This document shows, in pieces, positions 5,965 to 28,684 of a stretch of DNA of 64,000 nucleotides (the first letter of the stretch is position 1; each line of letters opens with the position of its first letter). The notes below the pieces were generated by a model that was not told where the DNA came from, did no database searches, and saw only the letters and a program-made list of their open reading frames with translations. The translations under genes were made by a program, and so were the position numbers. The DNA lies in NCBI RefSeq assembly GCF_016859125.1, contig NZ_CP069338.1:7999501-8063500 (forward strand), given 5' to 3'. This DNA is from Archangium violaceum (GTDB taxonomy: Bacteria > Myxococcota > Myxococcia > Myxococcales > Myxococcaceae).

Positions 5965-5967
5965 CCG

Positions 5968-9899: not shown

Positions 9900-9902
9900 G
9901 GC

Positions 9903-12032
9903 ATGAGCGCCTTCCATCGTCTCCACCCGCAGCTCCGCCACGCCATCGTGAACGAGCTGGGCTGGCGTAGCCTCCGGCCCGTGCAGGAACTGGCCGCCGA
10001 TGCCATCCTCGATGGGTGCAACGCGGTGGTGCTGGCGCCCACGGCTGGGGGCAAGACGGAGGCGAGTCTCTTCCCCGTGCTGTCGCGCATCCTGGCGGAG
10101 GATCTGCCTCCCGTGGCTGCGCTCTACGTGTGCCCCATCCGAGCCCTGCTCAACAACCAGGAGTCTCGGGTGCAGCGCTACGCGCGCATGGTGGGCCTGG
10201 ACGCCTTCAAGTGGCACGGGGATGTCGCGGGTACCGCCCGGGCCCGGTTCCTGCGGGAGCCAGCCCACGTACTGATGATCACCCCCGAGTCACTCGAAGT
10301 GATGCTCATCAGCCAGAAGACGGATGCGCGGTCGCTCTTCCGGGGGCTGTCGGCCGTCATCATCGACGAGGTGCACGCCTTCGCTGGAGATGACCGGGGC
10401 GCGCACCTGCTCAGCGTCCTGGAGCGCCTGGTGAACTTCTGCGGGCGGGACATCCAGCGCATCGGGCTGTCCGCCACGGTGGGAAACCCGGATGCCATCG
10501 GTCAGTGGCTCGTTGGTTCGAGCCAGCGCCCCTACCGACGGGTGGATCCGCCCCGGCCGCCGGGCGAGCGGGACCTGCACCTCGACTTTTTCGAGAACAC
10601 GGCGGACGTGGCCGCGGAGGCGGCGCGGCTCGGGCAGGGGAAGAAGAGTCTCGTGTTCGTCGAGAGCCGCAGCGAGGCCGAGCGGGTCGCCGCGGCCATG
10701 GCGGGCCGGGGGGTGGAGGTCTTCGTCCACCACAGCGCGGTGAGCCGCGCCGACCGCCAGCAGGCCGAGGAGCAATTCGAGAGGGGGCGCAACACGGCCA
10801 TCGTTTGCACTTCGACGATGGAGCTGGGCATCGACGTGGGAGACCTGGACCAAGTGCTCCAGGTGGATGCGCCAGCATCCGTGGCGAGCTTCCTCCAGCG
10901 AGTGGGTCGGACGGGGCGGCGCGAGGGGACGCGTTCGAACTGCACCTTCCTGTGCCAATCCCCCGAGACCCTGCTCCAGGCGACCGCTCTGGTGCGGCTT
11001 GTCGAGCGCGGGTGGGTGGAGGATGTACGTCCCCCCGAGCGGGCCTCGCACGTGCTCGCCCATCAGGTGCTGGCCCTGACGCTCCAGGAGGGAGGCGTCT
11101 CCCGGCACCAGGTGTTGCCCTGGGTTGCCGCGGCGAGTCCGTTCCGAGGGCTCCCAGAGGAGGACGTCCGCGAGCTGGTGGACACCATGCTGGAGCGGCG
11201 CATCCTCCACGAAGCAGAGGGACTTCTGTCCCTGGGGCTTGAGGGGGAGCGGGTCTACGGCCGCAAGAACTTCTTCGAGCTGTACGCCGTCTTCTCCTCG
11301 CCGCCGCTGCTGCGGGTGCTGCACGGCTCGACGGAGATCGGCACGTTGCAGGCCACGTTCGCGCGGAGCCAGGAGGACGGACACGGGCCGCTGTGCTTCC
11401 GGCTGGGCGGGAGGCCGTGGCTGGTGGTGCACGTGGACTGGGAGAAGGGGGTCTGTCAGGTCCAGCCCGCGGACAAGGGGAGGGTGCCGAGTTGGCTGGG
11501 TCCGCCCAAGAACCTGTCCTGGGCGCTGTGCCAGGAGATGAAGCGCACGCTGTCCGAGGAGGTGCCCCTCGGGGTGCTGGGCAAGACGGCGCGGGCTGAG
11601 CTCGAGGCGCTCCAGCAGACCTATGCGGGTTTGGTGGGGGAGGGGGAAGCGCCCCTGGAGGAAACGAGCGAGGGAGTGCAGTGGCATACCTTCGCGGGCG
11701 GAGCCATCAACCGACTGTTGGCCGCGGCCCTGGAGCAAGAGACGGGACGGCGGTGGACGCCGGGGAACCTGTCACTCAAGGTGAAGGACGCGGGCCTCTC
11801 CTGGGCGGGTCAGGCCATTGCATCCCTCCCACAGGTGAACTGGAACGAGAGGGCGTTCTCCCAGGCGGGTGAGGAGGTGAGGGGGAACCTGTCGAAGTTC
11901 CAGCGCTGCCTGTCACCTCGGCTCGAAGCGAAGCTGCTGGTCGAGCGGCTGTACGACGTGGAGGGGACGCGGGCCTTCATCGCCAACCACCGTGTCCCGC
12001 GAGTGAGTGGCGGCAGCGTCTGCGGGACGTGA
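9903..12032 (+). CDS. brxHI: BrxHI, BREX type 2 Lhr-like SF2 helicase
   Basis: A 709-residue DEAD/DEAH-type helicase closing the BREX type 2 operon. Motif I APTAGGKT is at residues 45-52, motif II DEVH begins at about residue 155, and motif III is the LSAT segment. The second RecA domain carries STMELGIDVGD and QRVGRTGRR. The C-terminal third (WHTFAGG onward) is the Lhr/BrxHI-type extension. It probably unwinds phage DNA or remodels BREX complexes; the exact role is not established. A truncated homologue of the same C-terminal region lies at 50838-51476 on the other strand. The ATG start is 3 bases after the brxD stop. Confidence 0.88.
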   Translation: MSAFHRLHPQLRHAIVNELGWRSLRPVQELAADAILDGCNAVVLAPTAGGKTEASLFPVLSRILAEDLPPVAALYVCPIRALLNNQESRVQRYARMVGLDAFKWHGDVAGTARARFLREPAHVLMITPESLEVMLISQKTDARSLFRGLSAVIIDEVHAFAGDDRGAHLLSVLERLVNFCGRDIQRIGLSATVGNPDAIGQWLVGSSQRPYRRVDPPRPPGERDLHLDFFENTADVAAEAARLGQGKKSLVFVESRSEAERVAAAMAGRGVEVFVHHSAVSRADRQQAEEQFERGRNTAIVCTSTMELGIDVGDLDQVLQVDAPASVASFLQRVGRTGRREGTRSNCTFLCQSPETLLQATALVRLVERGWVEDVRPPERASHVLAHQVLALTLQEGGVSRHQVLPWVAAASPFRGLPEEDVRELVDTMLERRILHEAEGLLSLGLEGERVYGRKNFFELYAVFSSPPLLRVLHGSTEIGTLQATFARSQEDGHGPLCFRLGGRPWLVVHVDWEKGVCQVQPADKGRVPSWLGPPKNLSWALCQEMKRTLSEEVPLGVLGKTARAELEALQQTYAGLVGEGEAPLEETSEGVQWHTFAGGAINRLLAAALEQETGRRWTPGNLSLKVKDAGLSWAGQAIASLPQVNWNERAFSQAGEEVRGNLSKFQRCLSPRLEAKLLVERLYDVEGTRAFIANHRVPRVSGGSVCGT

Positions 12033-12197: not shown

Positions 12198-15100
12198 ATG
12201 TCGTCATCGGATGAACTGCGCGTCGCACGTGACCGCGTCGCGCGCGTCTACCGCTACCTTCAAGCCCTCAATCAGCATCGGAACCCGGCGCCGCGTCTGC
12301 TGCGCGAGCAGCTCTGGCATTTCAGGCTGAACGCCCTGCCTGCGCACCCGTCCGTTCGGTTCTCCCGGCCTGTGGGGCCTCTGAACGACGGAGCGGAGGA
12401 TTCGGGCCCTAGCGATGGGGAGTTCATTCTCCAGGTCCGGCGTCCCGTACTCACTCCTCCTCCAGCCCCTCCAGCGGTCCTTGATGACTGGCTCCTCAGC
12501 AGCTGGAAGGACGCCTTCAAGTCTGTGGAGGTGAGGGCGTCGCGCAACGAGGCCGGCGTAGAGGGAAAGTCTCAGGTGGTCGGCTTTGCGGATGAGCCTG
12601 CGCGGTCGCGAGCCCTCTCTGAGTGGCAGCCACTACGGGATGCTTGGGCTCGAAACGAGCGACCAGCGCTGGATGCGATGCGCCTTTTCGAGCAGCTCTA
12701 CGCGCTACATGGCCGCCTTGAGCGCGAGGGCGAGCGGCTTGAGCTTGTCCTTGGTGACGGCATCCTGAGTTGGCGACGGCCGGATGGGGGCGTGTTCCAT
12801 CCCATTCTCCTCCAGCGAGTGCAGCTCGAATTCAACCCGTCCATCCCGGAGTTCACCGTCACCGATAGTGGGCGTGAGGTGGATCTCTACAGCGAACTTT
12901 TTCGCACCATGGAGGAGATGGTCGGGAAGATGTTGGCGCGCTGCCGCACCGAGCTCGCCGAGGGCGGCTATGGACCTCTCGGAGGGGCTGATACCTCCGG
13001 TTTTCTACGACGCTTGGTGGTCCAGCTGTCCGCGCAGGCTCAGTTTCGCGAGGATGGTCCTCCCAAGCCAGACGCGGACCCCCCGGAGGTAGGGCGCGAT
13101 CCCGTTCTCTTCCTACGCACGCGCAGCCTGGGCTTTGCCCGCATCCTGGAAGGGATCCTTGAGGACACTTCGACGCGCGAGGACGTGCCGGTTGCCCTGC
13201 TGCGCATTGTGGGCTCGGAGGTTGGCTCAGTCTCGGCAGGTCCAGACGAGCAGCATACCGAAGCACACGGTGAACCCCTGGACGTGCTGCTGAGCAAGCC
13301 CGCCAACCCCGAACAGGTGCAGATCGCACAGCGACTTGAGCGCCACGGTTGTGTCCTTGTCCAGGGGCCACCCGGTACTGGCAAGACGCACACGATTGCC
13401 AATCTGGTGGGCCACCTGCTTGCGCAGGGTAAGAGCGTGTTGGTGACGAGTCACACCACCAAGGCGCTCAAGGTGCTGAGGGATAAGGTAGTTCCAGAGC
13501 TTCGGCCGCTGTGCGTGAGCGTCTTGGAGAGTGACCTTGAGAGTCGCAAGCAGTTGGAGGGAGCGGTCGCTGGCATCGCGGAGCGCCTGTCCTCGAGTGA
13601 CGTCGCGCGCCTCGATGCAGAGGCGGCCCTTCTCGCAAGGCGCCGGCAACAACTTCTCGAGGAATTGCGATGTGCTCGTGCCGATCTTCTAGACGCTCAG
13701 GCTGACGAGTACAGGGACGTGGTGGTCGCGGGGAAGGCGTGGCCACCCTCGCAGGCCGCACGCCATGTGGCGGCGGAAGAGGACGCACACTGCTGGCTTC
13801 CCGGGCCTGTGAAGCTCGGAGCGGCTCTCCCTCTCCTGGATGGAGAGGTGCGCGAACTCTACCTCACCAACACGGCGGTATCCGCCGAACATGAGGGGGA
13901 GCTTGCGTGCAGTCTACCCGAGCCGGGGGACTTGCTGGCACCTCAGGAATTCGAAGCTCTGCTCCAGCGCCGACGGGTACTCGGTGCGAAAGAGCTCGGC
14001 TTCCGGGCTGAGCTGTGGGCAACCAGACCTCATGCGGACGACCCTGTTGACCTTGATGCACTCGCGGATCGCTGCCGACGTGCGATGGCGCCGCTCGCCG
14101 ACGCGGAGGCGTGGAAGCTCGCCGTGATCTCTGCTGGAGTGGCCGGGGAGACGGAAGCCGCACCCTGGCATTCCCTCGTCGCACTGGTGGAGCGGGTGCG
14201 AACGGAGGCTGTCAACGCACGAGAGTTGCTCTTGGATCACGCCCCGAATGTCGTTGGCGACCTCTCGCTTGAGGAGCAACTCCGGGTGGTGGGCGAAATT
14301 CAGCACCACTTGGAGAGCGGGGGAACGCTCAGCGCGTTCTCCCTTCTCACCCGCGGTGCGTGGAAGCGCTTCATCCGAGGCAGCCGAGTGGCCACGGGTG
14401 TGCCACGACAGCTGGAACACTTCCGGGCTCTTGGCTCGCTCCTGCGCGTCAAGGAGCTTCGCCAGGCACTTGCCGGCCGCTGGGACCGGCAGATGGGGGT
14501 GCTCGGAGCACCGGCGTCCGCACAACTCGGGGAGGCGCCCGAGGATTCCGCGATGCAGTACTGCGGTGAGATTCGCCGTGGCCTTGCGTGGGCGAGCTCC
14601 GTGTGGGGGCCTCTTGAGATGGAACTCGAGCAGCGCGGGCTGCGCTGGCGCGTGCTGCTCGACGAGGCTCAGGTCAACCTGGGTCCCCACGGCTCTCTCC
14701 TGCGGCTGCGCGATACCGTCGTTGGAGTCGTCACGAGGGTAGTGCAATCGCGTGCCTGGGCAGTCGAGCAGACACGAATCAACACCCGCCTGGATGCGGC
14801 AGCGCGCAAAGTCGCCACCTGGGGTGGAGCTGCGGCTCCCTCTACCCTTGTCCGAGCCTTGCACCGAGCGCTGGAGGCTGGCGATGCGCAGGGCTACGCA
14901 GAGACGTACGCTCGGTTCGTGGATGTGCATGGCCGGCGGCGAACCCTTGAGCGTCGCCGGGAGCTTCTCGGCCGACTAGAGGCTGTTGCTCCCGGGTGGG
15001 CCGCTGCTGTTCGGGAGCGACGTGGCATCAATGGGAACGATGCTCCACCGAGCTCCCCCGTGGACGCATGGTGCTGGCGCCAGTTACATGACGAGCTGGA

Positions 15101-17342
15101 GCGCCGCGGCCGCGTGCAGCTCCCCACGCTTCAGGAACAGATCGAGTCGAAGTCCAATGAGCTTCGGCGTACCACCGCAGAACTCATCGAGCGGCGCGCC
15201 TGGGCTGCGCAGGTGCGCCGCACCACCGTGCGGCAGCAGCAGGCGCTGGTGGGTTGGCTCGACCTGGTGCGCCGCATAGGAAAGGGCACTGGTAAGCGCG
15301 CCCCGCTGCTGAAGGCAGAGGCCGCGCGTCAGATGAACAAGTGCCGCGAGGCGGTTCCCGTATGGGTGATGCCGCTCACTCAGGTGGTGGAGAACTTCGA
15401 CGCGTCCACGCGGTTCGACGTCGTCATCATCGATGAGGCGAGCCAGAGTGATGTGATGGCGCTGGTCGCGTTGTACATGGCCGACTACGCAGTTGTCGTC
15501 GGTGATCACGAGCAGGTCAGCCCCTCCGCTGTTGGCCAGAATTTGGATGTAGTCCAGCACCTCATCGACGAGCATCTGGCGGGCATTCCCAATGCCATGC
15601 TCTATGACGGCCGGATGTCCGTGTACGACCTTGCCCGTCAGTCCTTCGGCGGCATGGTGTGCCTCACCGAGCACTTCCGTTGCGTGCCAGACATCATCGA
15701 GTTCAGTAACCAGCTATCGTACGAGGGCCGTATCAAGCCGCTGCGGGAGGCCGCAGACGCTACCCTCAAGCCAGCGCTCCTGACACACCGGGTGTCGGGT
15801 CGGGCCGAGGCGAAGGTCAACCGGCAGGAGGCGCTCGCGGTGGCCTCCCTTATCGTCGCTGCGGTGGAGCGCTCGGAGTACTCGGGCAGGACCTTCGGCG
15901 TCATCTCGCTCGTGGGTGAGGAGCAGGCACTCGAGGTGGAACAGTTGCTGCGCGAGCACCTGCACCCCACAGAATACGAACGCCGGCGCATTCTCTGTGG
16001 CAACGCGGCGCAATTCCAAGGGGACGAGCGCGATGTGATGTTCCTTTCCATGGTGGATAGCCCTCAGGGAGGGCCTCTCACCCTGCGTGCTACTCAGGAT
16101 TTCAAACAGCGATTCAATGTCGCTGTCAGCCGTGCTCGCGACCAACTCTGGGTGGTGTACTCCCTGAACGCCGGTGTGGACCTCAAGCCGGATGACCTCC
16201 GCCGACGACTCCTTGATCATTGCGCCAATCCGTGGGGCCTGGGCCAGGCTATTCAGCGAGCGGAGGCGAAGACGGAGTCGCCTTTCGAGCAGGAGGTGCT
16301 AGCGAGACTCGTGCGCGCGGGGTACCGCGTGACGCCTCAATGGGCGGTGGGACATTACCGCATCGATTTGGTTGTCGAGGGGGGCGGTCGCAGGCTGGCT
16401 GTCGAGTGCGACGGGGATCGTTACCACCCACTGGAGAAGCTGCCAGAGGACATGGCGCGGCAGGCCATTCTCGAGCGGCTCGGCTGGCGCTTTGTTCGGC
16501 TCCGTGGCAGTTCCTTCTTCCGCAATCCGGAAGCGGCAATGCAGCCTGTCTTCGCCCGACTGCGGGAGCTTGGCATCTCTCCAGAGGGAGGAGAAAGGAA
16601 TGCGTCCGAGGAGCCAGCGTCAATGGCGCTCCACGCAAGTCTCGTGCAGAGAGCCGAGGCACTTCAGCGTGAGTGGGAGCAGGAGGCCAGCTTGCGCTCT
16701 GCGGAGCAGAGAAAGTCAGACGATGAGAGCGCCTTGCCTCGTGTCGGCAGGAGTCCCGCTGGTTCAGGTGGCCCCGGCGCATCTGCTCGCGCGGCGCGAG
16801 GGGCTGCTGGACGCGTGGTGGGACAGAAGGCCACCTCTCCGGCGGATGCACCGGCCGCGACCGTTGCTGAAGGCTTCAAACCGGCTCTCAGTGTCCATGC
16901 GGCCCCGGTTGCGGAGACAGATTCGCGCCCGATGACAAGCCCAGTGCTCGCCGTCCCCCGTCCGGCCCCTGCAGAGCAGGTAAAGCATCCGGTCCGAGCC
17001 CGGTCTCCCAAGGATCCGCTGCCCGATACGGTGGCTGCGCTCCTCTCTGAGAACAGCTTCACTTGCCCGGCCTGCGGCGGTGGGCGGCGCCTGTGGGTGG
17101 GCGACAAGGGGCCGTTCCTCAAGTGTAACGTCCGTAGCTGCCTCAAGAGCGAGGGCGTGTCGGTGGAAATTCTTACGGAAGCGCTCAAGCAGCTTGCTGC
17201 CAAGTGCTCGTGCCTTGCACCCATGAAGGTGGAGAGAGGGCCGACAGGGCTTCCGGTTCTTGGTTGCTCGGAGGCTTCGACATGCCGGAAGAGCTTTCCA
17301 TGGAAGGAGTTCCGGGACCGGCTGCGCGGCCGGCTGCTCTAA
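12198..17342 (+). CDS. Giant SF1 helicase fused to a Vsr/MTES_1575-like nuclease and a zinc finger
   Basis: A 1714-residue fusion. An N-terminal ~380 residues of unknown fold precede an SF1 (Dna2/Upf1-type) helicase with Walker A GPPGTGKT at about residues 390-397 and DEAS Walker B near 1077. The C-terminal helicase motifs include QRFNVAVSRARDQLWVV. At ~1365-1460 follows a small endonuclease domain of the Vsr/REase_MTES_1575 type: SPFEQEVLARL start, then IDLVVEGGGRRLAVECDGD with the expected D...E-x-D pattern. A disordered linker leads to a topoisomerase-type zinc finger (TCPACGG ... KCNVRSC) near 1620. Helicase-Vsr fusions of this type are known in defence islands. It starts 165 bases after brxHI on the same strand, and the ribosome site is weak, so it may be a separate unit. 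It could be BREX cargo or an independent defence gene. Confidence 0.8.
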   Translation: MSSSDELRVARDRVARVYRYLQALNQHRNPAPRLLREQLWHFRLNALPAHPSVRFSRPVGPLNDGAEDSGPSDGEFILQVRRPVLTPPPAPPAVLDDWLLSSWKDAFKSVEVRASRNEAGVEGKSQVVGFADEPARSRALSEWQPLRDAWARNERPALDAMRLFEQLYALHGRLEREGERLELVLGDGILSWRRPDGGVFHPILLQRVQLEFNPSIPEFTVTDSGREVDLYSELFRTMEEMVGKMLARCRTELAEGGYGPLGGADTSGFLRRLVVQLSAQAQFREDGPPKPDADPPEVGRDPVLFLRTRSLGFARILEGILEDTSTREDVPVALLRIVGSEVGSVSAGPDEQHTEAHGEPLDVLLSKPANPEQVQIAQRLERHGCVLVQGPPGTGKTHTIANLVGHLLAQGKSVLVTSHTTKALKVLRDKVVPELRPLCVSVLESDLESRKQLEGAVAGIAERLSSSDVARLDAEAALLARRRQQLLEELRCARADLLDAQADEYRDVVVAGKAWPPSQAARHVAAEEDAHCWLPGPVKLGAALPLLDGEVRELYLTNTAVSAEHEGELACSLPEPGDLLAPQEFEALLQRRRVLGAKELGFRAELWATRPHADDPVDLDALADRCRRAMAPLADAEAWKLAVISAGVAGETEAAPWHSLVALVERVRTEAVNARELLLDHAPNVVGDLSLEEQLRVVGEIQHHLESGGTLSAFSLLTRGAWKRFIRGSRVATGVPRQLEHFRALGSLLRVKELRQALAGRWDRQMGVLGAPASAQLGEAPEDSAMQYCGEIRRGLAWASSVWGPLEMELEQRGLRWRVLLDEAQVNLGPHGSLLRLRDTVVGVVTRVVQSRAWAVEQTRINTRLDAAARKVATWGGAAAPSTLVRALHRALEAGDAQGYAETYARFVDVHGRRRTLERRRELLGRLEAVAPGWAAAVRERRGINGNDAPPSSPVDAWCWRQLHDELERRGRVQLPTLQEQIESKSNELRRTTAELIERRAWAAQVRRTTVRQQQALVGWLDLVRRIGKGTGKRAPLLKAEAARQMNKCREAVPVWVMPLTQVVENFDASTRFDVVIIDEASQSDVMALVALYMADYAVVVGDHEQVSPSAVGQNLDVVQHLIDEHLAGIPNAMLYDGRMSVYDLARQSFGGMVCLTEHFRCVPDIIEFSNQLSYEGRIKPLREAADATLKPALLTHRVSGRAEAKVNRQEALAVASLIVAAVERSEYSGRTFGVISLVGEEQALEVEQLLREHLHPTEYERRRILCGNAAQFQGDERDVMFLSMVDSPQGGPLTLRATQDFKQRFNVAVSRARDQLWVVYSLNAGVDLKPDDLRRRLLDHCANPWGLGQAIQRAEAKTESPFEQEVLARLVRAGYRVTPQWAVGHYRIDLVVEGGGRRLAVECDGDRYHPLEKLPEDMARQAILERLGWRFVRLRGSSFFRNPEAAMQPVFARLRELGISPEGGERNASEEPASMALHASLVQRAEALQREWEQEASLRSAEQRKSDDESALPRVGRSPAGSGGPGASARAARGAAGRVVGQKATSPADAPAATVAEGFKPALSVHAAPVAETDSRPMTSPVLAVPRPAPAEQVKHPVRARSPKDPLPDTVAALLSENSFTCPACGGGRRLWVGDKGPFLKCNVRSCLKSEGVSVEILTEALKQLAAKCSCLAPMKVERGPTGLPVLGCSEASTCRKSFPWKEFRDRLRGRLL

Positions 17343-17456: not shown

Positions 17457-18530
17457 ATGACGGAAATACTGGGGACGGAGCCTCCGCGTGTATACATCTG
17501 CTGTGATTGGGGTAAGGAGTTCGACAAGCGCGCAGTGTTCCTGACGGACACGCGCACGCGGCGTATTCGTTTCGCTGGGCGTAGCCCCTTCCTCTCCGCT
17601 GCAGGAACTCCCTGGTCTGTGCGAGAGGCACTGGCCTGTGCACGCGAATTCGCTCCGAAGAGTTCCGTGGTCCTTGCCTTCGATGTTCCGCTTGGTGTTC
17701 CACTCTCCTATTTTCACGCAGCGAAACGGTATGCACCCTGGACCAGTATCAAGACCTTCGTAGATTGGTTGCCACTTGCATGTCGTCATCGGGGTTTCCT
17801 TGAGAGCAGCAATACCGCCTCTACATGGCGGGTGGACCGCCCTTTCTTCGCCGTGCCTGCAGGTAAGGGGTCTCTCAAGGCATTCGAGGCAGAGGCGACC
17901 CGCTATGGAGTCTTGCTGCTACGGAGCATTGAGCGCCAAGCATGTGCCAAGCCTGTCTTCGTCACCTCCGGTATCCCCGGTTCAGTGGGGTCAGCGGCCA
18001 TCGAATTCTGGCGCGAGTTGGTGGATGTGCTCGCTGGGTCGCGTGACTTCGCATTGTGGCCCTTCGAGGGAAAGCTCGACACACTGCTGAATGCCCACCG
18101 CATAGTGCTCGCGGAGATGTACCCGCGTGCTGCCTATTCCGTTGCGCTTTCGTCATCCCCTCCTGAGGAGCGCGCGCGGTTGAAAATTGCGAAGAATGAT
18201 GAGGGCTGCCGGCGCGCCGCGTTGCGTGAGTTGCTTGATAGCAAATGGGTGCGCGATGAGCAGGTTGTGCTCACGCCGGAGGACGTTGAGAGCGCTGCGG
18301 TAAGCGAGGATTCCTTCGACGCGCTTATCACAGCGGCCGCCCTGCTGAGGTGTGCTCTTGACGGCACCCCACTGTCTCAACCCGCGTTGGAAGATCCGGA
18401 AGCGGAAGGCGGCATCCTATGCACCGGCGGCATTAACCTCGCATTACCTGAGAGGAACTTTGCAGGACCCTGTGTCGAGAGTCCCTCGTCACGTATGTGT
18501 TACCGCGCAGGCTTGTTGATGGGGATGTGA
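17457..18530 (+). CDS. DUF429-type RNase-H-like protein
   Basis: A 357-residue protein resembling DUF429, a predicted RNase-H-fold nuclease family. Acidic residues fall in family positions: YICCDWG on the first strand, VLAFDVPLG in the middle, and SFDALITAAALL followed by EAEGGIL at the end. The ATG at 17457 is preferred because GGGAGG sits 10 bases upstream; a longer frame with 22 extra residues begins at 17391 but has no ribosome site. It lies 114 bases after the helicase-nuclease on the same strand, so the two may form one transcription unit. Function is unproven; a nuclease partner for the helicase is an inference. Confidence 0.65.
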   Translation: MTEILGTEPPRVYICCDWGKEFDKRAVFLTDTRTRRIRFAGRSPFLSAAGTPWSVREALACAREFAPKSSVVLAFDVPLGVPLSYFHAAKRYAPWTSIKTFVDWLPLACRHRGFLESSNTASTWRVDRPFFAVPAGKGSLKAFEAEATRYGVLLLRSIERQACAKPVFVTSGIPGSVGSAAIEFWRELVDVLAGSRDFALWPFEGKLDTLLNAHRIVLAEMYPRAAYSVALSSSPPEERARLKIAKNDEGCRRAALRELLDSKWVRDEQVVLTPEDVESAAVSEDSFDALITAAALLRCALDGTPLSQPALEDPEAEGGILCTGGINLALPERNFAGPCVESPSSRMCYRAGLLMGM

Positions 18531-19118
18531 GCACGCTTGCTGATGGACTCTCCTTGGTGGCTCTATCGCCACACTGGGAGATGGGGAGGGGTTCGGGGAG
18601 GGGCGGCCCAGGGGTTGCGAAGGGAAGGCGGCCGACCCTCATGAGGGAGGGCACGGGATAGGGCGAGGGGAATCGGGCGTCGCTCGCACAGCCCATCCAG
18701 GCCATCCGGAGTGCTGAATGTCCCGAGCGCGGGAGGCAGCGACTGCGTGCACCGCGCGAGGTCGATTCCGGAGCAGTCGAGCACCAGCACGGAGTCAGGT
18801 GGGTTCATTGCCCGGTTGCCGCAAGTCCGCTCCACGCGACGGGAGGAGCAGCCTTCCGGCAACCTGGATGGAGGCCGAAGGAGCGGAGGGCGGCAGCGGA
18901 GGCATCGGCGCTCGGCCCCGCGGCAACAAGTGCTGGAGCTGGCCGGAGTACGCAGCCAGGCCTGTCGCGGGGCAGACCTGTCCCCTCCAGCCTCGCTGTC
19001 CGACGCGGGCCCAGGGGTGTGGGCGTGCGTCGACAGGCCGGATTCGAGCGCCGTATGCGCAGTGGCTACCCCCAACCCGGTGGGCGGTTCGGAGCCGCTG
19101 CTGGCGCCTGGGTTCCCA
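18531..19118. other. Stretch without a confident gene
   Basis: Both strands carry GC-driven open frames here, none with a recognisable motif or ribosome site. Because the zinc-binding transposase-like gene ends at 19119 reading into this stretch, it may hold a decayed second transposase gene on the minus strand. I could not reconstruct one. Confidence 0.3.
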
Positions 19119-19724
19119 TCAGCTCACATGGCAAGCCCCGGCGAACGCCTGGTGGGGCAACCCGGCTGCGCGTGCCCAGGGCGGTGCCCGGCCGCATAAG
19201 GCCTGGGCGGCACGTGCCGCCACCTGCCTGGGTGCACCCTTGGCCCGCGAATCCAGCGAGGCCCACAGCTTCCCATCCGCCACCTGCCGGGCCCAGCGCG
19301 CCAGCGTCCGCCATCCTCGGGGCTTTCCCTCCGCTGGCAGCTGTCCACCCACCACGGCGCGTACCTGGGCCGCGCTCCAGCCGCACAGGCCCCAGAGCGC
19401 CAGCGCCAGCGCCATGGCCGCTCCCGAGAAGTGCTTGCGGGCCAGCACGGACGCAGGCACCACCGTCAGCACGGCCGTACACGCCTTGCAGCGGTAGCGA
19501 CGACAGGCCACCTCCCGCTTCACCGCCACCTTTCCGGGAGCCTCGGGCCCTCGCTGCTGCCGCTGTACCACGCCATGCCCGTGTATCCACACCTCGCCCC
19601 CTTCGAAAGCCGGCTGGCCGCACCGCGGACACGTGCGCGGGCGGGCCTCGTCGGTGGTGGACGGCGACACACCGCTCTGCCCTCTCATGCGGAGGACTCC
19701 CCCGGTTTCTGTCTTCTGCTCCAT
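19119..19724 (-). CDS. Zinc-binding transposase-like protein (DUF6431-like)
   Basis: A ~201-residue protein starting at the ATG read from 19724. It has a CPRCGQ ... CKAC pattern, two CxxC knuckles ~45 residues apart, with a YRCKACTAVLTVVP segment typical of IS-encoded zinc-binding domains and similar to DUF6431 proteins. After this come helical residues ending in an Arg/Ala-rich tail. Such proteins usually accompany a DDE transposase, but no intact one follows at 18531-19118, so the element is probably incomplete. A longer reading frame exists upstream to 19949, but its added residues look non-coding. The right end of the element may be near 20000, where sequence character changes. Confidence 0.5.
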   Translation of the reverse strand: MEQKTETGGVLRMRGQSGVSPSTTDEARPRTCPRCGQPAFEGGEVWIHGHGVVQRQQRGPEAPGKVAVKREVACRRYRCKACTAVLTVVPASVLARKHFSGAAMALALALWGLCGWSAAQVRAVVGGQLPAEGKPRGWRTLARWARQVADGKLWASLDSRAKGAPRQVAARAAQALCGRAPPWARAAGLPHQAFAGACHVS

Positions 19725-20003
19725 GTTCGTCTTGTCGCGGAGCCCGGGTGTGGGCGGCGGGTCTGTCCACCGCCAACCCACCCCTGCTCGTTGCCATGCT
19801 GCTCCGCCCTCCTCTCGCGCCCGCTCTATCCCTGCTCCTGGGCGTTGACACGGACCAGCAGGGGCGGACAGGCACGGGCAACCTTGGGGCTCTTCCCTCG
19901 CCATGCTTGCTGATGGAATCCTGGCCCCGCCCGGGGGCCTCTCCATCATTCTGCGTGCTCATCCGGGCCCACTTCTCCCTCATCCAGCGTGCTCGGTAAC
20001 AGT

Positions 20004-20253: not shown

Positions 20254-22047
20254 TCACGACTGGGTCGAGCGCTTCTCCCATAACGCCAGGACGCGCGCAT
20301 AGCTCTTCACGTCATCCGGGAGCCCCTCATCCTGGACGTCGAGTACGGTGCACCAGTCGGTTCCTCCGTTCTTGGGGCCCCGCAGACCGCGTCCGACCAT
20401 CTGCTCATAACGAATAGCGCTCGTAGTCGGACGCGTCACGCAGACCACGTCCGCCTTTGGTGCGTCAAACCCCGTCGTCAGCACGCCGACATTGCAGAGG
20501 AATCGCAGGCTTCCGTCCCGGAATCGCTCGATAACCGAGGCTCGCTCCGTGCGCGGCGTCTGCCCCGTCACCACGGCTGCGCTCTCGTCACCGAAAGCCC
20601 GGTTGAGGGCTACCGTGAGTAGGTTCGCGTGCGCTACGGAGCAGGCGAACACCAACACTTGGCTCCGCGTTGGTAGCCGGCTCAGTGCCTTGATGATACG
20701 CGCGTTGCGCTCGGGTTCAAAACCGAGCTGCTCCAGGTAGTCGAGCGGCAGTTCCTTGAATCGTTCGTACTGCTGGCGCTGGTCCTCCGACATTGGGCGG
20801 GTTCCCTCGATTCGCAAGGGTACCGGTTTGACCTTGGCCAGGATCCCCATCTTTTGCAGCGCGGTTATCGGGTTGCTGCCCAGGGAATCCGGGCGGACGA
20901 GCCGGGCCTGGAAGTACTTTCGGAGAGTCGCGGTTTCTTCGCCCCGGGTGCGCCAGGGGGTCGCGGAAAGTCCAATGACCGGTGGCGCGCCCTGCAGGGT
21001 GCGCCACTCATGTTTAGCCCTCAGCCCGAGCGCGAGCAGCACCTCGCGGTGCTCATGAGTGATGAGCGAGTGCGCCTCGTCCACAACGACGCATGCTATC
21101 CGACGTGTGGGGATGCGCTCGAAGAACTCCGGCTTGTCCCGTGCCCAGGTAGCGAGTTGGTCGATACCGGCGATAAGGACAGTTGGCTCCTCGCTGAGTT
21201 CGATCTCATCGGGATCCCTTCCTCCCCAGAGTCGCACGATTCGGAGAGGGGCGTTGCGCCGGATGGTTTCGCCAGCGCGGTGCGGGGGAACCTGCCAGAC
21301 TTGGCGGAAGCACTCCCACGCTTGTTGTTGGAGTTCGTCACTTTGCGAGATCCAGAGCACGATGTTCCGATTCCTGCGCGCGTTTGTTTCGAGCGCGAAG
21401 TGGTCGCAGATCGCCTCGACGGTGACGCGTGTCTTTCCCGCACCGGTGGGGAGCGACATCATTGCCGCCTTTCCCTGGCCATCAAGGATGAGTTTTCGCA
21501 GGGACTTGTAGACTTCCACCTGGAACGGGTGCAGGGGCGTCAACGGCTCGACCGGGAGGATTTCCTCGTCCTTGGAAAAGGGGGCCTTTCTTGCCTGTGC
21601 TAGGACCTCCGGAAGCCCCGTGACGTCGCAGAAGGTTCGCGCCCACTTTGTGCCCTGGCGCCAGTACCCGGCCAGCACGCGCGAGCCGGTAGCGCCCTGG
21701 CTCATGTTGCCGTGGAATGCCGTGGCGCCCTTTCCAGCCATGTCCGGGTAGGCGTCCGCGAGCCTCTGCCATTGCGTCTCTGGCAATGTCTCCAGGATCT
21801 TCCACCGCAGCCATTCCCCAGTGGTGTCGTCGCCCAGCAGCCTGTGCCCCAGCAGGTCGATGACCTCCGCGATGGGTCGGGGTGGCAATCCGGGCGATAG
21901 GTGACCCGCTTGGCGGAGCGCCGCCCGGACCGCGTCTAGTTGGTTCCGGAGTGCGTTCCCGTTCGCGCTGGCCAGGAACTTCTCCCAGTCCTCGCGCGGG
22001 ATGCGCGAGAGCACCCGCTCCACTCTGTCTCGCTCCTCAGCTTCCAT
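20254..22047 (-). CDS. SF2 DEAH-box helicase, HsdR/UvrB-like
   Basis: A 597-residue superfamily 2 helicase. About 150 helical N-terminal residues precede PLTPLHPFQVEVY (Q-like motif). Walker A SLPTGAGKTRV is near residue 195, DEAH near 321, and GLSATPWR is motif III. The second RecA domain has GVLTTGFDAPKADVV and YEQMVGRGLRGPKNGG. There is no nuclease domain. It follows the RecD-like gene on the same strand with a 68-base gap, so the two are probably one operon. The helicase resembles the motor subunit of type I restriction or of several defence systems. Its specific partnership with the RecD-like protein is inferred from the layout. Confidence 0.8.
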   Translation of the reverse strand: MEAEERDRVERVLSRIPREDWEKFLASANGNALRNQLDAVRAALRQAGHLSPGLPPRPIAEVIDLLGHRLLGDDTTGEWLRWKILETLPETQWQRLADAYPDMAGKGATAFHGNMSQGATGSRVLAGYWRQGTKWARTFCDVTGLPEVLAQARKAPFSKDEEILPVEPLTPLHPFQVEVYKSLRKLILDGQGKAAMMSLPTGAGKTRVTVEAICDHFALETNARRNRNIVLWISQSDELQQQAWECFRQVWQVPPHRAGETIRRNAPLRIVRLWGGRDPDEIELSEEPTVLIAGIDQLATWARDKPEFFERIPTRRIACVVVDEAHSLITHEHREVLLALGLRAKHEWRTLQGAPPVIGLSATPWRTRGEETATLRKYFQARLVRPDSLGSNPITALQKMGILAKVKPVPLRIEGTRPMSEDQRQQYERFKELPLDYLEQLGFEPERNARIIKALSRLPTRSQVLVFACSVAHANLLTVALNRAFGDESAAVVTGQTPRTERASVIERFRDGSLRFLCNVGVLTTGFDAPKADVVCVTRPTTSAIRYEQMVGRGLRGPKNGGTDWCTVLDVQDEGLPDDVKSYARVLALWEKRSTQS

Positions 22048-22115
22048 TCTACAGCCCTCCAGGCTCCAAATGCGGTGAGGTTTGCTTCGCGGCCGCTGGC
22101 CTTCGATGTGTGGTG

Positions 22116-25100
22116 CTATTCAAGGAGCGTCTTGATGGCCAAGGCCGTCTTCTCCAGCGCCGCAGAATCGAGCCCGCCGCGTGCGTCCTCCTGAGACGTG
22201 AACAACGTCTTCCCGACCATGAACCCATTGCGCTGGTACCAGCCTCGTTTCCACTCCCAACCGCGGCGGTAGTCGGTGCGATCCATCATCCCCAGGTGCT
22301 CCCAGAGTACGAGGTCTCCGTCCGGCGTGACAAACGAGAAGTCCGGTCGCAGCCGGCCCGGCTCAGCCGTGCCCTCGCAGACGCGCTCGTATTCGTAGGG
22401 AATGTCGAGTTGGAACAGAAGATTGGCGATCACCAGTTCCGACTTGCTCCGCACAAGGTGACCTTTCTGGGTCCGGTGGATCAGGTTCTCCGCGTAAGGA
22501 ACCTCGGTTTCGCCCGCGCGTACCACCCCTGTGAAGAGGTTGGTGTTCCGGCGGGCGGTTTCTGAGCGCTCCGGCCGCGTCAGATCGAACAAGATGGACG
22601 CGTCGCCTCCCTCCACCAGCAGTACCAACTGCTCACGAGAGCGAGTCAGCGCTGTATAGAGCAACTCGCGTGAGAGCAGCCGGCAGCTCTTGGGGAGAAC
22701 GACGAACACCTTCCGGAACTCGCTGCCCTGCGCCTTGTGAACGGTGAGTGCGTAGGCCAGTTCGAGCGGACCAGTCCCTCCAGGGAAGTCTCGGCTGCTG
22801 TAGCCGAACCGCAGCCCCGGGCGTCCGGCAAACACGGCGTTGAGATAGCCCCCCTTGCCGGTTGCCATCAAACCCACCTCGCCGTTGGCCAAGTAGAACT
22901 CCTCTGAATTTTCCCCGTCGTAGCCGTTTCGTCGCTGGTTGACCGTCTGAATGACCTTGTCCTTTACGACGATGCTCTCATCGCCCAGGCTGGTGACCCA
23001 CGGGTTTGTCGCTGCTTCGAGTTCTCGCGCCCGGAAGTGCCGCTGCACCCAGCGGTTGAGGTCGTGCACGCCATGCGGATGCATTCTGACGGGGGAGAGG
23101 ATCTGCCAGCGCTCAGAGCCTTCTGGTGCATCGAAGGGGACCCAGCCTCGCTCGTCCAAACCCAATGACGTGTCGAAGCCCGCCACGTCGTTGCTGTTGC
23201 TCAATCCGAGGTGGCGGCGGAACGCCTCAAGAATCTTGGCGTGAAGATCCTCGGCATTTTTCCAGAACACGATCTCCAAATCATTGAACTGGGAGCCGAG
23301 TTCCAGGTCGCTGAGCACTCGGTCCGCATCGATGGCTTGGCGTTCGCGAGTGAACCACGAGGCGAGTCGCAGCGTGTCCGACGCGGTGTTTCCCGCCATG
23401 GCAGTCCGGACCTCTAGAGTAAGGCGAGCCAGGGCACCTGACAGTACCAGTTCTTCCTCGCCTGCTGCGGGGGCTGTCTCGAGGAATGACACGAGATCGG
23501 CGAAGGGGCGACCTACGCCGATGGGCGGCAGCTGGTTGGGGTCTCCTACCAGGATGATTCGTTGCACATGCGCCAAGTCGAGCGCATCGAGGACGGCCAA
23601 GAGGTCATCCATCGTGAGCATGGAGGATTCGTCGATGACGACCGTCTTCTCCTTGCGGTACTTCTCCTCGCCAGTGAACAGGGGCCGCTGGCGCTTGCCG
23701 TCGTAACGCTTCAGGCGGTAGAGAAACTGGGCCACCGTCATGGCCTCTGCATTGGTAGCCTTCCCCAGGCGGACGCGTGCCTTCCCAGTGGGGGCGAGCA
23801 GGAGGATTCCGTCCTTCGCGATGGCTTGGCACAACATGAGCGCACCGAGCACCGATGTCTTGCCGGTACCGGCACGTCCCACCAGAGCAGTGAGCCGACG
23901 CGAGGTAACCCGCTCCAGGGCGATGGCCTGTTCGGTGAGAGCCTCGGCATGTCGCTCATTTTTAGGGTCGAATTTGCCGCCGGCCTCAGTAATCGCCTGG
24001 ACAAGGAGCTTCTTCCAGTCTGCCTTGATGGGCGCGACTGGCTTCTGGGCACGTTTGGAGAGAATGGACCGCAGCTTCGCCTCGCGCTCTTCCAGCGGGG
24101 TGAGTTGGATGGCAGGAGTCTTGCTCCCGCCAACGCGCTCTGTGGTGACGTCCACCTGCTCAATCACCCCTTCCAGCACCGCCTGGTTTGTGGAGGGCCA
24201 ATCGCTGCCGATCTCGCACGGATGAGCGAGGTCGAGCTTGGCGGCCCTCTGGATCGCTTCTGTGACGCTCAGCAATGCATCGCCATCGTCAGCGGCCCTG
24301 CGCAGTGTGGCTACCAGGGCAGCCCGGAGGCGTCGGGGATCGTTTGGCGAGCTGACAGTAGAGGGGGCCGGGACGGGGTGCCTCGCTGCGATGGTGCTGT
24401 CCGGCAGTAGACCGCGGTCGATCATACCCACCGAGATAGGCGAGTCGTTCCGATCGCCAAGATCAACCTCACTCATGCGGTAGGGGTTCTCCAGGATCTC
24501 AAGGTCCGTGACCTGGGAGGTGGTGCCCTTCCTGCGCTCATCTGGGTCAAACCACCGCTTCGCTTGAATCGGAGTGAGGGCGAATCTGGAGAGCAGCATC
24601 AGCAGGGCCCTGCGCTCGTCAGGCAGGTTCGCCCACGATTTGCGCACCGCCTCAAGGTCGGCGGCGTACGCGGCCTGGGGTGGCTTCTTCTTGCCCCGGA
24701 GGATGGAATCTACCAGTGGCCAGGGGTTCTCGTCGGATTTGAGCTGTCCGGAGGACAGGAGTTCTAGCGACAGCGCGGTCCCGAGCCGCATTCCGAGCGC
24801 CTCGAGCACGGGCCCAAGGCCAGGGAATGCACCGCGGTCCTTCCAGGCCAGTGCGATCTGCGCGTTCAGCCACTCCTCGCGGCGCTCCCAGGGGCCCTTG
24901 GCGATACCGTGGGCACGGATTTGGCGCACCGACTCAAGGCACCGGACGAGCGTGGAGAGTGCGATGTCCGGTGGAGCCAATTCGGCGGCGTAGGAAAAGA
25001 CCCGAATGTGCGCGGGATCGGCGGGAACCGCGATCTCCCGGAGCAACTCCAGGCGGCGCTCGTCCTCGGCCGCGTTCCCCGTGGGCTCCAGGTACTCATG

Positions 25101-25805
25101 ATAGGGCAGGAGGAATCCGTCCTCCCCATCAGGGCGGATTGAGTGCCGGATCTGCCGATCCCACATGAGGTATGTGGGCTTGCCTTTCTCGACGTCGTAC
25201 GCCTTGGCCGGAGCGATCGAGGTAATGCGGCCCACTCCAACCACCAGACGCGAGATGTTATCCCCGAGTGGATGGCCCCCCTTGGAGTAGAAGAAGCTCA
25301 GGGAGCGCTCCGGGACCAAGCGGCCGAAGAACAAATCGAGGAGCGCCTGCTGCCGGGCACGACCGAACACCCATGCGCTCGCGAACGGAGAGTCCTCATC
25401 CGGCGGGAGGGGGCGTGCAAGCTTCTGATCGATTGCGTCCTGTCCATCGCGGAGCATCCAGGCGAAGGGCACCGCGAAGGTGGCAAACGGCGGGACCTTC
25501 ACCGGCGTAGGTTTGAGGTGGCCGTGTGTCTCTGCCGCTTTTTTGATTCCCACGTACGGATGCTCGAAACGCCGCGTCCACTCAAATGGGCTCATGAATG
25601 CGCCGGATTCCGCGCGGCAGGGGGGCAGCTCATCCTGAGTGAGCCCATTCCACTCGCGTCCGGCGAGCGCTTGCTCTTTTTTGTCGTCACGCTCCTCGCG
25701 GACCCGGTCCAGCACGGTGCAGAAGGAGTTGCAAGACGGCTCTTGGCAGACGCGACCGTTCCAACGAGAGTCGTGCCATGCGACACGGACGGTGAGATGG
25801 AACAT
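22116..25805 (-). CDS. RecD-like SF1B helicase with PD-(D/E)XK-like C-terminal domain
   Basis: A 1229-residue protein. The N terminus has four cysteines (C20, C25, C29, C63) spaced like a Zn or Fe-S site. About 570 residues without recognisable motifs follow. The RecD-type helicase core has GRAGTGKTS near 641-649, VVIDESSML near 720, LVGDPNQLPP near 750, YALTVHKAQGSEF near 1020 and a final LLYTALTRSREQLVLL. The last ~120 residues (VRSKSELVIANLL, RPDFSF, WEHLGM, then a WY..NG block) match a PD-(D/E)XK-type nuclease tail found on some defence helicases. The ATG at 25805 is supported by the conserved-looking HLTVRVAWHD start. The gene is followed by an SF2 helicase. It likely processes DNA ends or invading DNA. 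Confidence 0.8.
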   Translation of the reverse strand: MFHLTVRVAWHDSRWNGRVCQEPSCNSFCTVLDRVREERDDKKEQALAGREWNGLTQDELPPCRAESGAFMSPFEWTRRFEHPYVGIKKAAETHGHLKPTPVKVPPFATFAVPFAWMLRDGQDAIDQKLARPLPPDEDSPFASAWVFGRARQQALLDLFFGRLVPERSLSFFYSKGGHPLGDNISRLVVGVGRITSIAPAKAYDVEKGKPTYLMWDRQIRHSIRPDGEDGFLLPYHEYLEPTGNAAEDERRLELLREIAVPADPAHIRVFSYAAELAPPDIALSTLVRCLESVRQIRAHGIAKGPWERREEWLNAQIALAWKDRGAFPGLGPVLEALGMRLGTALSLELLSSGQLKSDENPWPLVDSILRGKKKPPQAAYAADLEAVRKSWANLPDERRALLMLLSRFALTPIQAKRWFDPDERRKGTTSQVTDLEILENPYRMSEVDLGDRNDSPISVGMIDRGLLPDSTIAARHPVPAPSTVSSPNDPRRLRAALVATLRRAADDGDALLSVTEAIQRAAKLDLAHPCEIGSDWPSTNQAVLEGVIEQVDVTTERVGGSKTPAIQLTPLEEREAKLRSILSKRAQKPVAPIKADWKKLLVQAITEAGGKFDPKNERHAEALTEQAIALERVTSRRLTALVGRAGTGKTSVLGALMLCQAIAKDGILLLAPTGKARVRLGKATNAEAMTVAQFLYRLKRYDGKRQRPLFTGEEKYRKEKTVVIDESSMLTMDDLLAVLDALDLAHVQRIILVGDPNQLPPIGVGRPFADLVSFLETAPAAGEEELVLSGALARLTLEVRTAMAGNTASDTLRLASWFTRERQAIDADRVLSDLELGSQFNDLEIVFWKNAEDLHAKILEAFRRHLGLSNSNDVAGFDTSLGLDERGWVPFDAPEGSERWQILSPVRMHPHGVHDLNRWVQRHFRARELEAATNPWVTSLGDESIVVKDKVIQTVNQRRNGYDGENSEEFYLANGEVGLMATGKGGYLNAVFAGRPGLRFGYSSRDFPGGTGPLELAYALTVHKAQGSEFRKVFVVLPKSCRLLSRELLYTALTRSREQLVLLVEGGDASILFDLTRPERSETARRNTNLFTGVVRAGETEVPYAENLIHRTQKGHLVRSKSELVIANLLFQLDIPYEYERVCEGTAEPGRLRPDFSFVTPDGDLVLWEHLGMMDRTDYRRGWEWKRGWYQRNGFMVGKTLFTSQEDARGGLDSAALEKTALAIKTLLE

Positions 25806-26077
25806 TTCGGTTTCCCCTCCTGCGCGGTCGATTCACTGCGCGCCCGATTGTACGTCGGGAAGTGCGCGTTGCGGGGCACTCTGCCGAAGAATTCGGTGAT
25901 GACGTGCTGGCCGTCGTAGCCATCCTCACCGTCCGTTGCACCACAGCCACACGCTGTTCTGGGCCCGCCCGATTTGGCGGACACTTGAGAAAAGGCGAGG
26001 ATGTCCACGGTAGAGCCGAAGAAATGCGGGCTGCGACCTTGAGGGAGCCCGTGACTGCCTGTCGAAGGGGAGGGGTC

Positions 26078-26836
26078 ATGAGCGGTAAAGCGTGGACGCG
26101 AATGTTCCTGGCCGACGATCTTGAGAGCGCGGTGATCTGCTCGGCGGGGTTCAAGCAACGCTTTGGCACACTGGCGGCGCACCCCTACGATCGGGACAAG
26201 CCTGACCGGACTGTCTGGTGGCTATTCCAGCGCACGAGCGTGAAATGGGGCAACTGGCCCGCGTACTCGCTAGGCAAGTTCTTCTTCGATCGTCCCGCTG
26301 GGCGCGGAGTCATGCGTGCAGGCATCCACATCGAAAAGGGCATCGCTCCGGAGAACGCGATGGGATACGGCGGAGGGAAGGGCAGGTACTTTGGGATGAC
26401 ACCGGACTGGGCCTGGTTCGGCTTTGTCGAGGATCTTCGTTCTGGACGGATGGCGACTGCGCTCGATGAGGTGGCGAGCCGGTCTGGCGAGCCTGCCGAG
26501 CTCACGATCGAGCCGAGCTTTCCGCTCGACGAGCCGAAGGTGCACGAGACGTTCGGGCATCATCGCTTCGTCGTGAGCAAGGGTGGAGGTCTCAAGCTCG
26601 TTGAGGAGCGCCCGCGTCCCGACAAACTCCCGGGTATCGGTAAGGTGACGTCGCTCCGCGAACTCGGAGAGCGGCTTGCACGAGCCACGACCGAGGAGCC
26701 TTGGACGTGGATCAACGTCTTCGTCTCTTGCGCGATACCGTACTGCTCCGAGCCACCCGTCGGAGCCGGCCCCGCGTGGAGTGGCACCGACTTCTGGGTG
26801 CGCGTGCTCGAACCACTAGCTGATTGGGTCAGATAG
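26078..26836 (+). CDS. Unknown protein divergent from the RecD-like helicase
   Basis: A 252-residue protein of no family I recognise. It begins at an ATG preceded by a purine-rich GAAGGGGAGGGG ribosome site; earlier in-frame starts lack one. The chain is clearly protein-like: aromatic-rich WWLFQRTSVKWGNWPAYSLG near residue 55, GGGKGRYFGM, a charged middle, and a hydrophobic C-terminal WINVFVSCAIPYC segment. No signal peptide or nucleotide-binding motif is visible. It is divergently arranged with the RecD-like gene across ~270 bases. It may belong to the same system as a sensor or modulator, or be an unrelated neighbour. Confidence 0.6.
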   Translation: MSGKAWTRMFLADDLESAVICSAGFKQRFGTLAAHPYDRDKPDRTVWWLFQRTSVKWGNWPAYSLGKFFFDRPAGRGVMRAGIHIEKGIAPENAMGYGGGKGRYFGMTPDWAWFGFVEDLRSGRMATALDEVASRSGEPAELTIEPSFPLDEPKVHETFGHHRFVVSKGGGLKLVEERPRPDKLPGIGKVTSLRELGERLARATTEEPWTWINVFVSCAIPYCSEPPVGAGPAWSGTDFWVRVLEPLADWVR

Positions 26837-26996
26837 CGACTCACATCGTCCGGCGAATAGGCTTGCCTCGGGTTGTATGCGGGTGTGCACCAGCTGCGGC
26901 ATCCCGTCATCGCCGATGCTGAAACAGGGCCTCCGGCATGTGCCCCCAATGTGCCCCTCCAGCGCGGATTCAGAGGGAATAAGGGGGTACGGCACG

Positions 26997-27253: not shown

Positions 27254-28684
<1,431 letters not shown>

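What the first reader, a model, noticed from the sequence alone, without database searches (positions are those of the whole stretch)
20254..26836. RecD-like helicase-nuclease, SF2 helicase and an unknown protein as a candidate defence cassette
A 1229-residue RecD-type helicase with a four-Cys N terminus (C20, C25, C29, C63) and a PD-(D/E)XK-like end, an SF2 DEAH helicase 68 bases behind it, and a divergent 252-residue protein of unknown family sit between BREX-2 and a tRNA integration site. The combination does not match a system I can name with confidence.
Basis: partly seen in the sequence, partly recalled or inferred. Interest (0 to 1): 0.7.

Follow-up and report, generated by a model that had tools for sequence, protein, structure and literature searches.

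The report
RecD-type nuclease beside BREX-2 island
A large DNA-unwinding and probably DNA-cutting enzyme of a known but untested anti-virus candidate family sits, with a second helicase, next to a bacterial virus-exclusion system on a mobile island; its front end is predicted to fold like domains that read chemically marked bases, which suggests that it attacks viral DNA that hides behind such marks.

Summary
The three genes exist as described. The 1229-residue protein is a full-length member of PDC-S68, an untested PADLOC phage defence candidate (1472 bits); no model covers the other two genes. Its motor and putative nuclease residues are (nearly) invariant in 84 aligned sequences. The "four-Cys" motif is three conserved Cys, probably with a His. 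The first ~295 residues, in a model of mean pLDDT 93.4, match PUA-superfamily folds (YTH, EVE, ASCH, VcaM4I) in all 14 listed PDB rows that cover them; but Z is only 4.7-6.7 and sequence tests are not significant. Relatives in bacteria and archaea often lie among type I restriction, N6-methylase and SNF2/ResIII genes. I read it as an ATP-driven helicase-nuclease that senses modified bases and backs up BREX; base reading and cutting are inferred. The RadD-like SF2 gene pairs with it in one other genome found, also beside BREX-2, and otherwise occurs without it. The 252-residue protein is a rare orphan, once beside PDC-S68 in another phylum and once beside a DISARM-like operon. A dedicated three-gene system is not supported. 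The genes lie at the right end of a 63.9-kb tRNA-Leu island; the tRNA-Arg site belongs to a second element.

The parts
22116..25805 (-). PDC-S68 protein, 1229 aa: PUA-like N-terminal domain (1 to ~295), RecD2-like accessory region (~394-592), RecD-type SF1B helicase (~620-1065), putative PD-(D/E)XK nuclease (~1110-1190)
   Evidence: PADLOC PDLC05065 1472 bits over residues 1-1223; Pfam AAA_30 and UvrD_C_2; NCBIfam RecD2 200.6 bits, below its cut-off of 500; residue conservation; model and structural matches
20254..22047 (-). RadD-like SF2 (DEAD/ResIII) helicase, 597 aa, 68 bases behind PDC-S68 on the same strand
   Evidence: Pfam Helicase_C, DEAD, ResIII; NCBIfam RadD local match 110 bits against a cut-off of 720; best PADLOC match partial, PbeA 43 bits
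26078..26836 (+). U252, orphan 252-aa protein, divergent from PDC-S68
   Evidence: no match in PADLOC, Pfam, NCBIfam or PHROGs; relatives in G138, G092 (fragment) and L041
27085..27111 (+). 27-bp copy of the tRNA-Leu(taa) 3' end: right end of the 63.9-kb island
   Evidence: identical to the end of the intact tRNA-Leu at window-numbered -36814 to -36788; sister genomes have the whole tRNA-Leu here
2338..12032 (+). BREX-2 genes pglY, pglZ, brxD, brxHI on the same island
   Evidence: PADLOC and NCBIfam; pglW lies upstream of the window (L121:12624-16751)
2..2341 (+). 3' part of pglX (named by position between pglW and pglY; not tested with a model)
   Evidence: 69% identical gene at the same place in the BREX-2 locus of G095
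12198..17342 (+). 1714-aa AAA_11/AAA_12 helicase with MTES_1575 nuclease, a second accessory next to BrxHI
   Evidence: Pfam, partial PADLOC matches
18498..20001 (.). insertion sequence between the DUF429 gene and SF2
   Evidence: three further near full-length copies in the genome at 96-100%

Best explanation
The RecD-like protein is a single-gene restriction effector of family PDC-S68 carried as an accessory of BREX-2. Proposed mechanism: (1) the N-terminal PUA-superfamily-like domain, perhaps braced by a C20/C29/C63 (+His) metal site, senses a modified base, probably a phage cytosine-type modification (inferred); (2) binding licenses the RecD-type SF1B motor to unwind DNA with ATP (motor residues shown invariant, activity inferred); (3) the C-terminal PD-(D/E)XK-type domain cuts the DNA (residues shown nearly invariant, activity inferred); (4) it thereby stops phages whose base modifications let them escape BREX, while host BREX N6-methyladenine is not a trigger (inferred). 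The RadD-like SF2 helicase is an interchangeable helper that may load or clear DNA for it (inferred). U252 is a separately travelling defence-island gene of unknown role.
For: Full-length PDC-S68 match, 1472 bits. K649, D725, E726, Q758, Q901, Q1026 and R1055 in 84 of 84; E1123 84, D1155 and E1169 83 of 84. N-terminal model pLDDT 93.4, pTM 0.87. Of the 50 rows shown by VIA-align (470 had Z >= 2), the 14 that start at model residue 1 are all PUA-superfamily proteins: Mmi1 and YTHDF2 YTH domains, PH1033 (EVE by recall), ZmASCH, and VcaM4I, a modification-dependent EVE-HNH nuclease (PMC7897488, passages); best 5o8m, Z 6.7, rmsd 3.3, 122 aligned of 134. A weak profile alignment puts W145 (55 of 63) and Y173 (63 of 63) on the invariant EVE W25 and Y49. 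Co-directional neighbours include ResIII, SNF2, N6 methylase and HsdR proteins. Precedent: the type IV enzyme BrxU complements BREX on one island (PMC8565348, abstract and passages). PDC-S68 + SF2 beside BREX-2 also in G095.
Against: Foldseek gives no PDB match at E <= 0.001 for the N-terminal model (0 of 251). Z 4.7-6.7 lies in the range that the tool calls a possible common arrangement. Profile comparison with 22 EVE domains: probability 0.9%, E 0.058; 5 of 150 column shuffles scored as high. None of 63 N-terminal members matches a PUA-type Pfam family up to E 10, and their profile matches no PDB sequence up to E 10. A PUA-type fold may bind RNA or unmodified nucleic acid. K1186 is not in the usual E-x-K place and no Pfam nuclease family matches. 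BREX-2 linkage: 2 of 4 PDC-S68 genomes against 14 of 195 with BREX-2, P 0.027, not corrected for kinship; none of 8 other BREX-2 loci looked at carries it downstream. 17 of 79 PDC-S68 loci have no co-directional neighbour within 300 bp. No activity is shown anywhere.
Confidence: 0.42

Rival explanations
1. PDC-S68 is a defence helicase-nuclease that senses DNA ends, single strands or stalled replication, as RecBCD or RecD2 do, and no modified base. The N-terminal domain only grips nucleic acid or a partner protein. It is a back-up nuclease behind BREX.
For: Closest solved relatives by sequence are RecD2 and RecD; RecD2 is also the best structural match (3gp8, Z 9.9, rmsd 4.2, 161 residues). 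Sequence tests for EVE are not significant. PMC12839542 (section 35, part 1) describes many nucleases as auxiliary effectors of BREX.
Against: The listed N-terminal fold neighbours are one superfamily with many modified-base readers; W10, Y173 and W215 are in 63 of 63, which suggests a specific pocket or surface.
Confidence: 0.33
2. RecD-like, SF2 and U252 form one dedicated defence system whose parts act only together.
For: Adjacent here; RecD+SF2 also adjacent in G095; a U252 relative lies 210 bp behind PDC-S68 in a Dehalococcoidia contig.
Against: All three together were seen only in the window. U252 in 1 of 50 PDC-S68 genomes; the G138 U252 lies beside NERD-helicase/DrmA/DrmB and G138 has no PDC-S68 match; of the five SF2 genomes of the phylum, G099, G013 and G157 have no PDC-S68 match.
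Confidence: 0.08
3. The pair is a DNA repair or recombination module, or passenger cargo of the island, without a role in defence.
For: RecD2 and RadD are repair helicases; the genes sit on an integrative element with cargo.
Against: Profile match to a defence candidate, not to RecD2 or RadD equivalogs; recurrent setting among restriction and methylase genes; patchy distribution, 4 of 195 genomes of the phylum.
Confidence: 0.1

Closest known systems
PDC-S68 (PADLOC-DB phage defence candidate, single gene)
   Same: Full-length match, 1472 bits over residues 1-1223.
   Different: No mechanism or validation found: 0 papers of the held library name it; PDCs come from guilt-by-embedding and most lack validation (PMC12988326, passages). 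The PUA-like reading and the BREX-2 pairing are added here.
BrxU (GmrSD-type IV enzyme) beside type I BREX on pEFER
   Same: Nucleotide-dependent single-protein restriction factor in a BREX island, complementary to BREX (PMC8565348, passages).
   Different: BrxU has DUF262/DUF1524 domains; here a RecD motor, a PUA-like front and a PD-(D/E)XK-like end, beside BREX-2. Modification dependence is shown for BrxU, only inferred here.
VcaM4I and other EVE/YTH/SRA modification-dependent nucleases
   Same: A PUA-superfamily sensor joined to a nuclease (PMC7897488, passages); VcaM4I is among the structural matches (6yex, Z 5.0, rmsd 3.6, 126 residues).
   Different: Those listed there have HNH or PD-(D/E)XK nucleases without a helicase; no significant sequence relation found.
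RecD2 and RecBCD RecD
   Same: SF1B helicase core and, for RecD2, the accessory region before it.
   Different: Below both NCBIfam cut-offs (200.6 of 500; 154 of 310); extra N-terminal domain and C-terminal nuclease-like domain.
RadD/YejH and PbeA-like SF2 helicases (SF2 gene)
   Same: Local matches, RadD 110 bits, PbeA 43 bits; plasmid relatives stand in sulphur-modification-type loci.
   Different: Far below the RadD cut-off of 720; own N-terminal ~160 aa without a family match.
Auxiliary and backup effectors of BREX (Rakesh and Krishnan 2026)
   Same: A nuclease next to BREX genes, as they describe in general (PMC12839542, section 35 part 1).
   Different: RecD and UvrD are not named in the main text (0 occurrences); supplements not seen.

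Membership tests
PDC-S68 | full-length profile match | tested here: met
   1472.2 bits, protein 1-1223, profile 5-1217 of 1221
PDC-S68 | anti-phage activity | not testable with these tools
   no experiment; none found in print under this name
RecD2 (SF1B equivalog) | NCBIfam TIGR01448 above its cut-off | tested here: not met
   200.6 bits against 500
RecBCD RecD | NCBIfam TIGR01447 above its cut-off | tested here: not met
   154 bits against 310
PUA superfamily (EVE/YTH/ASCH) | PUA fold of the N-terminal domain | tested here: inconclusive
   14 of 14 listed rows covering it are PUA-type but Z 4.7-6.7; Foldseek E > 0.001
PUA superfamily (EVE/YTH/ASCH) | sequence-profile relation to EVE | tested here: inconclusive
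   hhalign E 0.058, 5 of 150 shuffles as high, 0 of 63 members with a PUA-type Pfam match
Type IV restriction | cleaves modified DNA only | not testable with these tools
   needs an enzyme assay
PD-(D/E)XK nucleases | conserved acidic and lysine active site in a nuclease fold | tested here: inconclusive
   E1123, D1155, E1169, K1186 conserved; no Pfam match for the C-terminal 159 aa; that part was not modelled
RadD (SF2 gene) | NCBIfam NF053632 above its cut-off | tested here: not met
   110 bits against 720
BREX type 2 (neighbour) | PglW, PglY, PglZ, BrxD, BrxHI present | tested here: met
   PglX named by position only
Dedicated RecD+SF2+U252 system | recurrent co-occurrence of all three genes | tested here: not met
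   all three seen together only in the window

The most novel reading that the evidence does not exclude
PDC-S68 is a widespread class of type IV-like restriction enzyme, in bacteria and archaea, that joins a PUA-superfamily modified-base reader to a RecD-family motor and a PD-(D/E)XK nuclease, and that travels as a plug-in for BREX-2, type I restriction, SNF2/methylase and related modification-based systems to catch phages with modified genomes.
Probability: 0.35. Interest if true: 0.68.

Novelty: new variant of a known kind. Interest (0 to 1): 0.5.

Why it matters
PDC-S68 is a named candidate without a mechanism. If the modified-base reading is right, it explains why such a gene keeps turning up among modification-based systems: it covers the phages that escape them. 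It would add a RecD-type motor to the known designs of modification-dependent restriction, and one purified protein with a panel of modified DNAs would decide it.

Tried and rejected
U252 was sought in four family libraries, plasmids (its L041 relative), phages, viral contigs, 195 genomes of the phylum, 301 of the phylum of L041's genome and 50 genomes with PDC-S68. It stays an orphan. The match in G519 (E 9.3e-4, 18.6 bits, in an 897-aa frame) was taken as chance. Its AlphaFold model is poor (mean pLDDT 48, three rows) and was not searched.

A four-Cys site was rejected: C25 is not conserved.

A regular BREX-2 link was tested and is weak: 2 of 14 BREX-2 genomes have PDC-S68, and in 8 of the 12 other BREX-2 genomes the 9.8 to 18.7 kb fetched on the BrxD/BrxHI side hold no match to RecD, SF2 or U252; the other 4 were not looked at.

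Between RecD and U252 only one weak promoter-like match was found, inside U252; Rfam gave only the tRNA; no tandem repeats. The viral fold library gave one match at E <= 0.001, a giant-virus RecD2-like protein. PDB rows over model residues ~390-590 other than RecD2 are mostly winged-helix proteins at Z about 5 and were not interpreted.

Dropped before counts: of 88 PDC-S68 loci 87 entered the neighbour clustering (L061 had no called RecD frame); 8 with short or broken frames were set aside before the operon count; 22 of 149 neighbour proteins were left out of the Pfam count for its residue limit. The 80 named loci are the best of 562 relatives in a capped list. No background set of proteins was scanned.

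Papers: PMC12839542: outline, abstract, section 22, section 35 part 1 of 2, passages. PMC7641849, PMC7897488, PMC8565348, PMC12988326, PMC11514479: passages. Searches are search listings; one search was dominated by papers without the term RecD-like. That the PUA-like reading of PDC-S68 is not in print rests only.
Full report
What is there. On the minus strand a 1229-aa gene (22116-25805) is followed after 68 bases by a 597-aa gene (20254-22047); on the plus strand, divergent from the first, a 252-aa frame runs from 26078 to 26836. BREX-2 genes pglY, pglZ, brxD and brxHI lie at 2338-12032 and pglW lies upstream of the window.

The mobile setting. In two of three sister genomes fetched, a tRNA-Leu(taa) stands just before or near tRNA-Arg(ccg) (L111 and L113); in L111 homology to the window starts at 27085, inside that tRNA-Leu. 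The intact tRNA-Leu of this genome lies about 64 kb to the left, and its last 27 bases are repeated exactly at 27085-27111, 63.9 kb from the first copy. A tyrosine integrase follows the intact tRNA at the left end (PF00589, 1.4e-35). So BREX-2, SF2, RecD and U252 ride on one tRNA-Leu island. The tRNA-Arg and its integrase (27260-28684) belong to a second element on the right: a 120-bp copy of the tRNA-Arg end, 95% identical, stands at 73065-73184 in window numbering.

The RecD-like gene. It matches PADLOC PDC-S68 over its whole length at 1472 bits and stays below the RecD2 cut-off (200.6 bits against 500). 4 of 195 genomes of the phylum carry it, 8 plasmid records have a match, and 80 named loci were kept from 562 relatives, among them several bacterial phyla and archaea. 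In 84 aligned sequences the motor residues are invariant and the putative nuclease residues E1123, D1155 and E1169 nearly so; C20, C29 and C63 occur together in 78 of 84, and H3 in 79.

Its neighbours elsewhere. In 26 of 87 loci a cluster of SNF2-type helicases occurs within twelve genes. Of 79 loci, 62 have co-directional genes of 150 aa or more within 300-bp steps and 17 have none. Among 127 of the 149 such proteins, ResIII matched 32, SNF2-rel_dom 18, N6_Mtase 10, Eco57I 9, HSDR_N 8 and N6_N4_Mtase 6; these families overlap on the same proteins. No background set was scanned, so enrichment is inferred from the usual rarity of such genes.

What the front end is. A model of residues 1-638 from 63 sequences has mean pLDDT 93.4. 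Residues 394-592 superpose on RecD2 (3gp8, Z 9.9). Of the 50 rows shown, the 14 that start at residue 1 (and end near 290-318) are YTH, EVE, ASCH or the EVE-HNH enzyme VcaM4I, Z 4.7-6.7 (PH1033 as EVE is recalled). Against this, Foldseek alone gives nothing in the PDB at E <= 0.001, the profile comparison with 22 EVE domains gives E 0.058 with 5 of 150 shuffles as good, and Pfam finds no such family in any of 63 members. The weak profile alignment does place W145 and Y173 on the invariant EVE Trp and Tyr. I hold the PUA-like fold as likely and base reading as plausible.

The SF2 gene. It is RadD-like by local match only. In the phylum 5 of 195 genomes have a relative, this one included. Only G095 has it next to PDC-S68, 6 bp away and directly behind BrxHI of a BREX-2 locus; there PglZ is 82% and BrxD (382 aa seen) 93% identical to ours, the RecD protein 58-59% and the SF2 protein 34% over 386 aa. 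G099 keeps a 98-aa fragment, 91% identical. Of 14 plasmid records with relatives six were examined: three show a helicase, ATP-binding protein and phospholipase D in that order with sulphur-modification-type genes, two do not, and one is a relative over 97% of the length with no PDC-S68 match within the 17.6 kb fetched. SF2 is thus an exchangeable partner at most.

U252. Relatives: 92% in G138, head to head with a NERD-helicase, DrmA, DrmB operon; a 40-aa relic in G092; 33% over 123 aa in a Dehalococcoidia contig, its frame 210 bp behind the PDC-S68 gene. It occurs in 1 of 50 PDC-S68 genomes. It is a real, rare gene seen with defence genes; its role is unknown.

BREX-2 link. 14 of 195 genomes have BREX-2 PglZ, 4 have PDC-S68, 2 have both, and in both the genes are neighbours (P 0.027 without correction for kinship). 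In eight further BREX-2 genomes the stretch behind BrxHI that was fetched holds other genes.

Conclusion. The finding is real but not a new three-gene system. It is a member of a named, untested candidate family beside BREX-2, and the mechanism I hold most likely is an ATP-driven helicase-nuclease that senses base modification and backs up BREX, as the unrelated BrxU does (PMC8565348, passages). Shown: gene content, family, conserved residues, island ends. Inferred: base reading, cleavage, partnership with SF2.

Noticed in passing
27253-28684 and window-numbered 73065-73184 (L114): A second integrative element of about 45.8 kb lies right of tRNA-Arg(ccg); with the tRNA-Leu site it forms a tandem integration hot spot.
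   Followed up: partly
18498-20001: Insertion sequence with inverted ends and, by eye, a 5-bp target repeat GTATG; three further near full-length copies at 96-100% in the genome. The stop of the DUF429 gene (17391-18530) lies inside it, so that gene's 3' end looks interrupted.
   Followed up: yes
12198-17342: 1714-aa AAA_11/AAA_12 helicase with a C-terminal MTES_1575 nuclease (104.9 bits) and partial PADLOC matches to PDC-S37, MkoC and Hhe, directly behind BrxHI: another helicase-nuclease accessory.
   Followed up: partly
26934-26966, about -36750, and -17931 to -17896 (window numbering): Similar 33-36-bp sequences (91-92%) close to both island ends and once inside the island, possibly integrase arm sites or the mark of an older, smaller element.
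   Followed up: no
L016:13755-15962: The 72% identical PDC-S68 of a Rhodanobacteraceae genome is followed by a PDC-S06 protein (990 bits), a PrrC-like ATPase family: two candidate families in tandem.
   Followed up: no
L012: A Gabija-like pair (609-aa ATPase and 643-aa UvrD-type helicase, named by eye) follows a PDC-S68 gene, with a large methyltransferase-like frame upstream.
   Followed up: no
L109: In G138 the U252 relative stands head to head with NERD-helicase, DrmA and DrmB genes, a DISARM-like set without the usual methylase among the four genes scanned.
   Followed up: partly
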